Shown here: in pieces, positions 28,554 to 59,657 of the stretch | Layout: each line of letters starts with the position of its first letter | Numbering within the stretch: the stretch's first letter is position 1 | Origin: Streptomyces sp. NBC_00513 | GTDB taxonomy: Bacteria > Actinomycetota > Actinomycetes > Streptomycetales > Streptomycetaceae | Assembly: GCF_041431415.1 (NCBI RefSeq) | Contig: NZ_CP107845.1 | Coordinates: 4,340,001-4,404,000 of the forward strand | Length of the DNA stretch: 64,000 nt | Direction of reading: 5' to 3' | Position numbers and translations under genes: made by a program | The notes under the pieces: model-generated | What the model was told of the DNA's origin: nothing | What the model saw: the letters and a program-made list of their open reading frames with translations, nothing else | The model's database searches: none

Positions 28554-28601
28554 GGTGATGAATCCCTTCTACCGGCAGGAACGTGCCGGACGATCCGAGT
28601 G

Positions 28602-28617
28602 GAAGGTCTAGTCCAGT
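28602..28617. promoter_or_regulatory. DasR-responsive-element-like site upstream of msiK
   Basis: GAAGGTCTAGTCCAGT; on the other strand ACTGGACTAGACCTTC matches the dre consensus A(C/G)TGGTCTAGACCA(C/G)T at 12 of 16 positions. It shares the core AAGGTCTAGTCCA with the site before nagK at 49990-50005. Confidence 0.6.
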
Positions 28618-28809: not shown

Positions 28810-28884
28810 GCCTCCTTAGCTCAGTCCGGCCAGAGCAACGCACTTGTAATGCGTAGGTCATCGGTTCGAATCCGATAGGGGGCT
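28810..28884 (+). tRNA. tRNA-Thr (anticodon TGT)
   Basis: Cloverleaf can be folded by eye: acceptor GCCTCCT / AGGGGGC with discriminator T, D stem GCTC / GAGC, anticodon stem ACGCA / TGCGT with loop CTTGTAA (anticodon TGT, reading ACA), and T arm ATCGG-TTCGAAT-CCGAT. No CCA is encoded. A strong hairpin follows at 28894-28924. Confidence 0.95.
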
Positions 28885-55164: not shown

Positions 55165-55303
55165 CTCGCCGTTCGGACGGCTGTCTCAACCGCCCGGGGC
55201 TTCGGTTACAGTCTTGAACAACGCGATGGACCACCGCATGCCGGGGGTCCGCGTGTACAAACGCCCGGGCCCGCCATGGAGTGCGTCACCCGGTGCCATA
55301 CCG

Positions 55304-55457
55304 CTCATCCAGAGGGGCAGAGGGACACGGCCCGTTGAAGCCCCGGCAACCCTCCAGTCGGTCTCGCGATCACGCACATCCGCTGCGTCAGCGAGGTCCC
55401 CGGCTAGGGAAGGTGCCAATTCCGTCTCATGGCGAAGTGCGCCATGGGGAAGATGAG
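55304..55457 (+). ncRNA. SAM-I (S-box) riboswitch controlling metM-metO
   Basis: P1 is formed by CTCATC (55304-55309) and GATGAG (55452-55457). The P2 kink-turn region reads CAGAGGGGCAGAGGGAC then GGCCCGTTGAAGCCCCGGCA, with ACCCTCC on the 3' side; these are the hallmark S-box elements. The J3/4-P3 side carries GGTGCCAATTCCG, the conserved core sequence. The 3' strand of P1 runs into AGGAG (55456-55460), which lies upstream of the metM start. This fits control by sequestering the ribosome binding site when SAM is bound, although a terminator is not excluded. SAM-IV looks less likely because P2/P3 follow the SAM-I order. Confidence 0.93.
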
Positions 55458-55476
55458 GAGAAAGGGCCTCGCCATC

Positions 55477-56760
55477 ATGGCTGCACAGACCGTCGCAACC
55501 TCTGCCGAAACCGTAGATCTCGGACCCGCCACCGGCCTTTCCTGCCGCGAGTGCGCCACCCGCTTCGAACTCGGTCCGATCTTCGCCTGCGCCGAGTGTT
55601 TCGGACCGCTCGAAGTCGCCTACGACCTGCCGACCGGTGACCCCGAGGCGCTGCGCGCCGCGATCGAGGCCGGTCCGAACAACATCTGGCGCTACGCGCC
55701 GCTGCTGCCCGTCCCGGCGGACGTGGCCTCCAAGCCGAGCCTGAACCCCGGCTTCACCAAGCTCGTGGACGCCGAGAACCTGGCCAAGGAGCTGGGCGTC
55801 ACCGGCAAGCTCTACGTCAAGGACGACTCCGGCAACCCGACGCACTCCTTCAAGGACCGCGTCGTCGCCATCGCCGTCGAGGCCGCCCGCGCCTTCGGCT
55901 TCACCACCCTCTCCTGCTCCTCCACGGGCAACCTGGCCGGAGCCGTCGGCGCCGCGGCCGCCCGCGCCGGCTTCCGGTCCTGCGTGTTCATCCCGCACGA
56001 CCTGGAGCAGGGCAAGGTCGTCATGGCCGGTGTCTACGGTGGCGACCTGGTCGGCATCGAGGGCAACTACGACGACGTCAACCGCTTCTGCTCCGAGCTC
56101 ATCGGCGACCCGCTCGGCGAGGGCTGGGGCTTCGTCAACGTCAACCTGCGCCCGTACTACGGCGAGGGCTCCAAGACCCTCGCGTACGAGATCTGCGAGC
56201 AGCTCGGCTGGCGGCTGCCCGACCAGATCGTCATCCCGATCGCGTCCGGCTCGCAGCTGACGAAGATCGACAAGGGTCTCCAGGAACTGATCAGGCTCGG
56301 CCTGGTCGAGGACAGGCCGTACAAGATCTTCGGCGCCCAGGCCGAGGGCTGCTCGCCCGTCTCCACCGCCTTCAAGGCCGGCCACGAGGTGGTCCGCCCG
56401 CAGAAGCCGAACACCATCGCCAAGTCCCTCGCGATCGGCAACCCGGCCGACGGCCCGTACGTCCTGGACATCGCCCGCCGCACCGGCGGCTACGTGGAGG
56501 ACGTCAACGACGAGCAGGTCGTCGAGGCCATCAAGATCCTCGCGCAGACCGAGGGCATCTTCGCCGAGACCGCGGGCGGCGTGACCGTCGGCGTGACGAA
56601 GAAGCTCATCGACAACGGGCAGCTCGACCCCGCGCTGACCACGGTCATCCTGAACACGGGTGACGGTCTCAAGACCCTGGAGGCGGTGGCCGCGGACAGC
56701 GGGCAGACCGCCACCATCCGCCCGAGCCTGGACGCGTTCCGCGCCGCCGGCCTGGCCTGA
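55477..56760 (+). CDS. metM: Threonine-synthase-like PLP enzyme; probable homocysteine synthase MetM
   Basis: 427 residues from ATG 55477, the first start beyond the riboswitch; ATG 55429 lies inside the aptamer. An N-terminal zinc-ribbon (Cys23, Cys26, Cys38, Cys41 in CREC...CAEC) precedes the PLP fold II domain. PLP Lys126 lies in GNPTHSFKDRVVAIAV; the phosphate-binding CSSTGNLAGAVGAAAARAG and the VIPIASGSQLTKIDKGLQE site follow. By sequence this is threonine synthase (O-phosphohomoserine to Thr). The SAM riboswitch and the adjacent carrier gene indicate methionine synthesis, and Streptomyces has a separate thrC with hom and thrB. I therefore favour MetM, which sulfurates O-phosphohomoserine to homocysteine. 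Confidence 0.88.
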   Translation: MAAQTVATSAETVDLGPATGLSCRECATRFELGPIFACAECFGPLEVAYDLPTGDPEALRAAIEAGPNNIWRYAPLLPVPADVASKPSLNPGFTKLVDAENLAKELGVTGKLYVKDDSGNPTHSFKDRVVAIAVEAARAFGFTTLSCSSTGNLAGAVGAAAARAGFRSCVFIPHDLEQGKVVMAGVYGGDLVGIEGNYDDVNRFCSELIGDPLGEGWGFVNVNLRPYYGEGSKTLAYEICEQLGWRLPDQIVIPIASGSQLTKIDKGLQELIRLGLVEDRPYKIFGAQAEGCSPVSTAFKAGHEVVRPQKPNTIAKSLAIGNPADGPYVLDIARRTGGYVEDVNDEQVVEAIKILAQTEGIFAETAGGVTVGVTKKLIDNGQLDPALTTVILNTGDGLKTLEAVAADSGQTATIRPSLDAFRAAGLA

Positions 56761-56793
56761 CCCTCCCCCGTACTCCGGAAAGGCAGTAGCGCC

Positions 56794-57072
56794 ATGAGCG
56801 TCAACGTCCGCATCCCCACCATCCTGCGCACCTACACCGGCGGCCGGGCCGAGGTGTCCGCCGAGGGCGCGACCCTCTCCCAGGTCATCGAGTCCCTGGA
56901 GAAGAGCCACCCGGGCATCGCCGCCCGCGTCCTGGACGACCAGGGCAAGCTGCGCCGCTTCGTGAACGTCTACGTCAACGACGACGACGTGCGCTTCGAG
57001 GGCGGGCTGCAGACGGCGACGCCCGACGGCGCCGGCATCTCGATCATTCCGGCGGTCGCGGGCGGCTGCTGA
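56794..57072 (+). CDS. metO: MoaD/ThiS-family sulfur carrier protein MetO
   Basis: 92 residues. Beta-grasp fold: VRIPTILRTYTGGRAEVSAE, helix LSQVIESLEKSHPGIAARVL, and LRRFVNVYVNDDDVRFEGGL then ISIIPAVAGGC. The C-terminus is Gly90-Gly91-Cys92, so the usual terminal diglycine is capped by Cys. A protease must remove Cys92 before adenylation and thiocarboxylation, as with other capped carriers. The carrier would donate sulfur to the reaction catalysed by the upstream enzyme. It lies 33 bases after metM, in the same transcript, and a terminator follows. Confidence 0.87.
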   Translation: MSVNVRIPTILRTYTGGRAEVSAEGATLSQVIESLEKSHPGIAARVLDDQGKLRRFVNVYVNDDDVRFEGGLQTATPDGAGISIIPAVAGGC

Positions 57073-57144
57073 CCCGTCCGGACTTCCGCCGACGGACTTC
57101 CGCGGGGACTTCCCCCGAGGGTCGTGCGTCGACAAGAGCAAACC

Positions 57145-57182
57145 GAATTGCCCCTTCCGCCGATAAGCGGAGGGGGCAATTC
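57145..57182 (+). terminator. metM-metO terminator
   Basis: Arms 57145-57160 and 57167-57182 (GAATTGCCCCTTCCGC / GCGGAGGGGGCAATTC), 16 bp with one mismatch, loop CGATAA, followed by TGGTTGATT. Confidence 0.85.

Positions 57183-59657
<2,475 letters not shown>

What the first reader, a model, noticed from the sequence alone, without database searches (positions are those of the whole stretch)
55304..57072. SAM-riboswitch-controlled threonine-synthase homologue plus sulfur carrier: a direct O-phosphohomoserine-to-homocysteine route (MetM/MetO)
Seen: an S-box aptamer, then a gene of the threonine-synthase fold with a four-Cys zinc ribbon and intact PLP Lys, then a beta-grasp carrier 33 bases later, then a terminator. 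Known: SAM-I riboswitches almost always control methionine or SAM genes, threonine synthase uses O-phosphohomoserine, and Streptomyces keeps another thrC with hom and thrB. A methionine route of this kind (MetM with a thiocarboxylated carrier MetO) has recently been reported for Streptomyces. Inference: this locus makes homocysteine, not threonine, so the usual annotation as threonine synthase would mislead.
Basis: partly seen in the sequence, partly recalled or inferred. Interest (0 to 1): 0.88.

Follow-up and report, generated by a model that had tools for sequence, protein, structure and literature searches.

The report
Methionine gene pair mislabelled threonine synthase
A Streptomyces gene pair, preceded by a switch for the methionine product SAM and routinely named threonine synthase, almost certainly makes homocysteine for methionine using sulfur handed over by a small carrier protein, as was recently reported for a related strain.

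Summary
Confirmed: a SAM-I riboswitch (55302-55459), a threonine-synthase-like PLP enzyme (55477-56760) and, 33 bases on, a ThiS-type carrier (56794-57072), then a strong hairpin. Supported: the pair is MetM/MetO, the published O-phosphohomoserine-to-homocysteine route. The genome has a separate hom-thrC-thrB cluster; searches found no MetX, MetA or HcyBio. In 197 Actinomycetota genomes a second thrC-family gene tracks MetM: 71 of 72 against 2 of 125. MetM and ThrC form separate clades. A carrier adjoins MetM in 26 of 30 actinobacterial and 79 of 80 cross-phylum loci; SAM-I precedes it in 22 of 30 and 24 of 80. Additions: the carrier ends GG-C and probably needs uncapping (JAMM and MoeZ-like genes present); the one SAM-IV riboswitch found precedes a SufS-like desulfurase. 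Against: 17 of 72 MetM genomes also carry MetX; the genome has a cystathionine-gamma-synthase homologue; a cyanobacterial relative was reported as a threonine deaminase. Biochemistry was not testable. The system is already known; interest is modest.

The parts
55302..55459 (+). SAM-I (S-box) riboswitch aptamer with an enlarged P3 arm (49 bases not modelled by Rfam)
   Evidence: Rfam RF00162, 75.5 bits, gathering 44.4; aligned with 7 Streptomyces relatives
55304..55309 (+). P1 5' strand CUCAUC
   Evidence: fold and alignment, invariant in 8 of 8
55452..55457 (+). P1 3' strand GAUGAG, running directly into the presumed ribosome-binding site
55455..55466 (+). Shine-Dalgarno-like stretch GAGGAGAAAGGG overlapping P1; proposed expression platform (inferred)
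   Evidence: invariant in 8 of 8 Streptomyces; no terminator pattern on the + strand
55477..56760 (+). metM: PLP fold-type II enzyme of the threonine-synthase family, 427 aa, zinc-ribbon-like Cys 23/26/38/41, PLP Lys126
   Evidence: Pfam PF00291; TIGR00260 270.7 bits; own clade; diagnostic residues
56794..57072 (+). metO: ThiS/MoaD-type sulfur carrier, 92 aa, C-terminus AGGC (GG capped by Cys)
   Evidence: Pfam PF02597; best PDB match 3dwg_C; profile search
57141..57187 (+). strong 3' hairpin after metO, no U-tract
   Evidence: fold -36.1 kcal/mol, z -6.3; not listed by the terminator scan

Best explanation
The locus is a SAM-repressed metM-metO operon for de novo homocysteine synthesis. Proposed chain: the ThrB product O-phosphohomoserine enters MetM (PLP on Lys126) and, as in threonine synthase, loses phosphate to give a PLP-bound unsaturated intermediate. 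Instead of water, sulfur from the thiocarboxylated C-terminal glycine of MetO is added at the gamma carbon, giving homocysteine and spent MetO. MetO here ends GG-C, so a JAMM protease (candidate near CysO-CysM) would first remove the Cys, and a MoeZ-like ThiF-rhodanese protein would adenylate and thiocarboxylate the GG end. High SAM closes P1 of the riboswitch and hides part of the overlapping ribosome-binding site, lowering translation. Shown here: sequence features, genome content, phylogeny, linkage. Reported by others for the S. albulus pair (seen in passages of PMC12172450): homocysteine synthase activity, SAM riboswitch, relief of Met auxotrophy. Inferred: substrate use by this protein, cap removal, the MoeZ step, the translational mode.
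For: SAM-I upstream, the only RF00162 match in the genome. Separate thrC, 35% identical (123 of 353 aligned), in hom-thrC-thrB. MetX search gives only fragments of at most 24.5 bits, no MetA, no HcyBio. Sample of 197 Actinomycetota: MetM-type in 72; two or more thrC-family genes in 71 of these 72 against 2 of the other 125. Tree: 30 MetM and 27 ThrC rows, each on one side of a branch, SH-aLRT 99 and 96. Residues L153, E177, R225, Y228, S232, S257, G258 in 110 of 110 MetM-type rows against T, A, N, R, Q, N, A in 27 of 27 ThrC rows. Carrier adjoining MetM in 26 of 30 and 79 of 80 loci. SAM-I upstream in 22 of 30 and 24 of 80. JAMM and MoeZ-like genes present. PMC12172450 passages describe S. albulus MetM as a homocysteine synthase with an upstream SAM riboswitch and a metO gene.
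Against: NCBIfam TIGR00260 thrC scores it over its cut-off (270.7 against 167.1). 17 of 72 MetM genomes also have MetX, 3 of 8 same-genus genomes among them, so MetM is not only a substitute for MetX. This genome has a cystathionine gamma-synthase homologue. In 4 of 30 phylum-sample loci (L030, L037, L042, L045) no carrier was found beside MetM. PMC12172450 reports for the Microcystis relative a threonine deaminase activity, weak threonine synthesis at 30 mM O-phosphohomoserine, and no rise of methionine when it was induced. No SAM-I was found in 36 of 36 cyanobacterial and 11 of 11 Nitrospirota loci. Identity to the tested S. albulus protein was not measured.
Confidence: 0.93

Rival explanations
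1. It is a second, SAM-regulated threonine synthase; the carrier serves another pathway and is only a neighbour.
For: TIGR00260 over cut-off; shared fold and catalytic Lys; the Microcystis relative made some threonine at 30 mM O-phosphohomoserine (passage of PMC12172450).
Against: Separate hom-thrC-thrB present; carrier linkage in 79 of 80 loci under seven phylum labels; SAM riboswitch; separate clade and motifs.
Confidence: 0.04
2. Not exclusive of the best explanation: homocysteine in this strain is mainly made by transsulfuration, the cystathionine gamma-synthase homologue using O-phosphohomoserine or another ester, and MetM/MetO is an auxiliary or conditional route.
For: PRK07811 cystathionine gamma-synthase 684.2 bits, cut-off 513; 3 of 8 same-genus genomes also keep MetX.
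Against: No MetX or MetA to make the usual esters was found here; such enzymes often run as gamma-lyases (recalled).
Confidence: 0.15
3. The pair makes cysteine or another thiol (a CysM/CysO-like reaction) rather than homocysteine.
For: MetO's best solved match is 3dwg_C, listed as cfp10A and recalled as CysO of M. tuberculosis; MetO is 54% identical (51 of 94) to the genome's CysO.
Against: A CysO-CysM pair with a JAMM gene near it exists elsewhere; MetM scores far higher with threonine synthase than with cysteine synthase models (270.7 against at most 36.6 bits); a SAM riboswitch precedes it.
Confidence: 0.03

Closest known systems
MetM/MetO of Streptomyces albulus (Hasebe et al. 2024, Appl Environ Microbiol 90:e01247-24; not held, known here through passages of PMC12172450)
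   Same: Threonine-synthase homologue with upstream SAM riboswitch and a sulfur-carrier gene metO, same genus
   Different: No difference was found, but no direct comparison was made: the S. albulus sequences were not obtained
Threonine synthase ThrC (TIGR00260; solved 2zsj, 6cgq, 1uim, 2d1f)
   Same: PLP fold, catalytic Lys, STGN loop; presumed same substrate O-phosphohomoserine
   Different: N-terminal Cys motif; STGNLA instead of STGNTS; E177, R225, Y228, S232, S257; not in hom-thrB; adjoins a carrier
CysO-CysM-Mec cysteine route (M. tuberculosis; route recalled)
   Same: Carrier-based sulfur transfer to a PLP enzyme; MetO 54% identical to this genome's CysO
   Different: PLP partner is of threonine-synthase, not cysteine-synthase type; SAM riboswitch upstream
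PtmS3 / PtmS1 / PtmS4 of Streptomyces platensis (PMC6006322, section 7 read)
   Same: A carrier with GG capped by a single Cys (PtmS3); a JAMM protease (PtmS1) and an activator (PtmS4, written MoaZ homologue there) in the genome
   Different: Studied there as sulfur supply for thiocarboxylic acid antibiotics; orthology of PtmS3 to MetO is inferred from the cap alone
SLIV_16930-SLIV_16925 of S. lividans TK24 (PMC8079986, passages with Table 3)
   Same: RF00162 leader before a two-gene unit
   Different: Listed there under threonine biosynthesis; orthology inferred, sequences not compared

Membership tests
MetM/MetO route | Threonine-synthase homologue distinct from the genome's ThrC | tested here: met
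   tree; second thrC in hom cluster
MetM/MetO route | Adjacent sulfur-carrier gene with C-terminal GG | tested here: met
   56794-57072, AGGC; the GG is followed by one Cys
MetM/MetO route | SAM riboswitch upstream (as described for S. albulus) | tested here: met
   RF00162 75.5 bits
MetM/MetO route | Genome lacks a complete MetX/MetA route | tested here: met
   not universal in relatives: 17 of 72 MetM genomes also have MetX
MetM/MetO route | Sequence identity to the tested S. albulus MetM and MetO | not tested
   sequences not obtained; the paper is not held
MetM/MetO route | O-phosphohomoserine plus thiocarboxylated carrier gives homocysteine; Met auxotrophy on deletion | not testable with these tools
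   needs enzyme assay and knock-out
Threonine synthase ThrC (TIGR00260) | Scores over the curated cut-off | tested here: met
   270.7 against 167.1; the model does not separate MetM from ThrC
Threonine synthase ThrC (TIGR00260) | Groups with ThrC, including that of hom-thrC-thrB | tested here: not met
   separate groups
Threonine synthase ThrC (TIGR00260) | ThrC motif set seen in 27 of 27 ThrC rows (STGNTS, NSxNxxR, GNA) | tested here: not met
SAM-I riboswitch RF00162 | Covariance model over gathering score | tested here: met
SAM-I riboswitch RF00162 | SAM binding and gene control | not testable with these tools
   needs in-line probing and reporter assay
CysO (cysteine-route carrier) | Linked to CysM and a JAMM protease | tested here: not met
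   a CysO with CysM and JAMM lies at another locus, L008; metO adjoins metM

The most novel reading that the evidence does not exclude
Methionine synthesis in Streptomyces runs on a dedicated SAM-controlled sulfur relay: the SufS-like cysteine desulfurase behind the SAM-IV riboswitch supplies persulfide sulfur to the MoeZ-like activator, which loads MetO after JAMM removal of a C-terminal Cys cap, and MetM transfers the sulfur to O-phosphohomoserine. Two different SAM riboswitch classes would thus control donor and acceptor of one pathway, and the cap would be an extra gate present only in some lineages.
Probability: 0.35. Interest if true: 0.55.

Novelty: already known. Interest (0 to 1): 0.33.

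Why it matters
Automatic annotation calls this gene threonine synthase, and the named public relatives listed carry that name, so methionine pathways can look broken in genomes that have it. The diagnostic residues and the carrier linkage give a simple rule to find MetM candidates in Actinomycetota, Chloroflexota, Cyanobacteria and Nitrospirota. The SAM-IV desulfurase is a testable candidate for the sulfur donor.

Tried and rejected
Considered and rejected: a plain second ThrC; a CysM-type cysteine synthase; upstream starts at 55429, 55444 and 55453 (the frame of 55453 is lost in 4 of 8 relatives; the other two were not checked one by one); control by an intrinsic terminator in the window (none on the + strand), although such hairpins follow the aptamer in L040, L051 and L035 (other loci were not scanned). 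The Cys motif is not by itself evidence for MetM: I recall archaeal threonine synthases with one.

Led nowhere: a search seeded with the S. chattanoogensis protein to reach S. albulus MetM listed no S. albulus or S. noursei entry by name among its 120 rows. Solved structures gave ThrC and other PLP enzymes only. No structure prediction was run. Among the listings (searches show 20 of 1,257 and 20 of 69 papers) the only paper on MetM that I saw was PMC12172450; PMC13257386 and PMC12452182 do not contain the word.

Limits: loci were fetched for 30 of the 72 MetM hits (the best scoring, the window's own included). Four of 30 fetched ThrC loci (L056, L062, L065, L076) were dropped before the tree because my fixed-offset extraction failed; the own ThrC was added, giving 27. 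The first tree used the quick method with very long outgroup branches; a second one of 137 rows, FastTree, again set the 27 ThrC rows apart (100), but warned of long branches meeting. The carrier profile was built in part from carriers of the same 30 loci. No genome in the MetX search passed that model's cut-off of 500 bits, control genomes included, so I used E up to 1e-40. The Fisher test of MetM against MetX (17 both, 55 MetM only, 56 MetX only, 69 neither; p 0.0035) ignores kinship. Genome-wide, only two SAM riboswitch families were sought, RF00162 and RF00634.

Full report
WHAT IS THERE. The window lies in an 8.6-Mb genome whose nearest named proteins are Streptomyces. At 55302-55459 (+) is a SAM-I aptamer, 75.5 bits against a gathering score of 44.4, with an enlarged P3 arm (49 bases not modelled). 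The next ORF starts most likely at ATG 55477: its distance from the aptamer differs by one base between species, which puts the upstream ATG at 55453 out of frame in 4 of 8 Streptomyces sequences. It encodes 427 aa with Pfam PALP, PLP Lys126 and four Cys at 23, 26, 38 and 41. After 33 bases comes a 92-aa ThiS-family carrier ending AGGC. A 47-base hairpin follows (57141-57187, -36.1 kcal/mol, z -6.3); it has no U-tract and the terminator scan does not list it.

IS THE ENZYME THREONINE SYNTHASE? By profile it would be called so: TIGR00260 270.7 bits over a cut-off of 167.1, and the named relatives among the 120 listed are called threonine synthase. But the genome holds another thrC-family gene, 35% identical over the aligned part, between hom and thrB. 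In 197 Actinomycetota genomes, MetM-type proteins (E at most 1e-80) occur in 72. Two or more thrC-family genes (E at most 1e-50) occur in 71 of these 72 but in only 2 of the other 125. In a tree of 30 MetM-type, 27 ThrC and 2 other rows, each of the two groups lies on one side of a branch (SH-aLRT 99 and 96; quick method, no bootstrap, two very long outgroup branches). Positions 153, 177, 225, 228, 232, 257 and 258 read L, E, R, Y, S, S, G in 110 of 110 MetM-type rows and T, A, N, R, Q, N, A in 27 of 27 ThrC rows. I recall that the ThrC positions equivalent to 223-228 and 257 hold the substrate phosphate; this was not tested here.

DOES THE GENOME NEED IT FOR METHIONINE? The MetX search gave two fragments only (best 24.5 bits); no MetA and no HcyBio were found. 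Two strong Cys/Met-metabolism PLP enzymes are present among 10 matches: one scores as cystathionine gamma-synthase, one as cystathionine gamma-lyase. Thus the only homoserine activation found is homoserine kinase, giving O-phosphohomoserine. Across the 197 genomes MetM and MetX avoid each other only mildly: 17 have both against 26.7 expected, 69 have neither (Fisher p 0.0035, kinship ignored). Eight of eight same-genus genomes, the own one included, have MetM, and three of the eight also have MetX. So MetM is not simply the gene that replaces MetX.

LINKAGE. A profile made from 13 carriers (12 MetO-type and the genome's CysO) finds one beside MetM in 26 of 30 loci of the phylum sample; L030, L037, L042 and L045 have none (L042 is cut short). 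It finds one downstream on the same strand, 11 to 577 bases away, in 79 of 80 loci from a scan of named genomes; L129 (Pseudanabaena) has none. The 80 are Cyanobacteriota 36, Actinomycetota 19, Chloroflexota 11, Nitrospirota 11 and three others 1 each (labels of metagenome bins may be wrong). SAM-I precedes MetM in 22 of 30 and in 24 of 80: 18 of 19 Actinomycetota, 5 of 11 Chloroflexota, 1 of 1 Acidobacteriota, 0 of 36 Cyanobacteriota, 0 of 11 Nitrospirota, 0 of 2 others. The authors of PMC12172450 had noted a metO-like gene next to the Microcystis thrC (passage).

HOW IT WOULD WORK. Reported (seen only in passages of PMC12172450): Hasebe et al. 2024 identified MetM as a homocysteine synthase in Streptomyces, with a SAM riboswitch upstream in S. 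albulus, relief of Met auxotrophy, and a carrier gene metO. My recollection of that paper's abstract adds that thiocarboxylated MetO is the sulfur donor and O-phosphohomoserine the acceptor. Here MetO ends GG-C. PMC6006322 (section 7 read) describes in S. platensis a carrier capped by a single C (PtmS3), a JAMM protease and an activator (PtmS4); loss of the protease or of the activator abolished the thioacid products. This genome has a JAMM protein near CysO and CysM (CysO ends GG-AK) and a ThiF-rhodanese protein. So both CysO and MetO look capped. The cap is not general: 62 of 79 cross-phylum carriers end at GG, and among eight same-genus carriers the window's and that of L023 end GGC while six end GG.

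RIBOSWITCH MODE. In 8 of 8 Streptomyces the P1 3' strand GAUGAG runs into GAGAAAGGG shortly before the start codon, invariant, with no terminator pattern on the + strand of the window. Closing of P1 by SAM would hide part of the ribosome-binding site: translational control is inferred, and the spacing from the GAGGAG part to ATG is long, so this is not certain. In L040, L051 and L035, from other families of the phylum, a terminator-like hairpin with a T-run follows the aptamer, so the same aptamer seems wired to transcription there.

SAM-IV AND SULFUR SUPPLY. One SAM-IV riboswitch was found in the genome. The gene after it is a class-V aminotransferase closest to SufS cysteine desulfurases (Pfam Aminotran_5 1.4e-73; TIGR01979 249.3 bits, below its cut-off of 475.1). 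PMC8079986 names two SAM riboswitch variants in S. lividans: SAM-IV before a cysteine desulfurase (filed under thiamine) and SAM-I before a two-gene unit (filed under threonine); it says that 21 of its 22 predicted leaders were transcribed, and it also lists metH and metK leader RNAs (passages). PMC8269248 reports a premature transcript with a predicted SAM-IV riboswitch before a class-V aminotransferase-like gene in S. clavuligerus (passages). I infer that this desulfurase feeds the MoeZ/MetO relay; no test was made, and the protein is below the curated SufS cut-off.

VERDICT. The system is in print, so it is not new. The extra points (diagnostic residues, broad carrier linkage, the cap, the change of riboswitch mode, the SAM-IV desulfurase as donor) are modest additions. 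I did not meet them in print, but only the held PMC papers were searched, no search was aimed at each point, and the primary paper could not be read.

Noticed in passing
G000:C1:2465966-2466082 (-); L085:5853-7235 (-): Single SAM-IV riboswitch before a SufS-like class-V aminotransferase; possible sulfur donor of the MetM/MetO route.
   Followed up: partly
L006:7561-8673 (-), G000:C1 near 4.98 Mb: A third threonine-synthase-like PLP protein (370 aa, Cys-rich N-terminus), below the cut-off of each NCBIfam threonine synthase model listed; role unknown.
   Followed up: partly
L008, G000:C1 near 3.18 Mb: CysO here ends GG-AK, next to CysM and near a JAMM protease; both CysO and MetO of this genome look capped.
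   Followed up: partly
57844-57906: Two CIRCE-like elements (2 and 1 mismatches; shuffles gave 0) before a GroEL gene starting near 58 kb.
   Followed up: no
28557-28614 (-): msiK RNA motif (RF01747, 54.1 bits), and a tRNA at 28810-28884 (+).
   Followed up: no
L040, L051, L035 after the aptamer: Intrinsic-terminator-like hairpins follow the same SAM-I aptamer in these three relatives, unlike the window.
   Followed up: partly
L013:1342-1467: Streptomyces sRNA Scr3920 (RF02828, 109 bits) beside the cystathionine-gamma-lyase-like gene.
   Followed up: no
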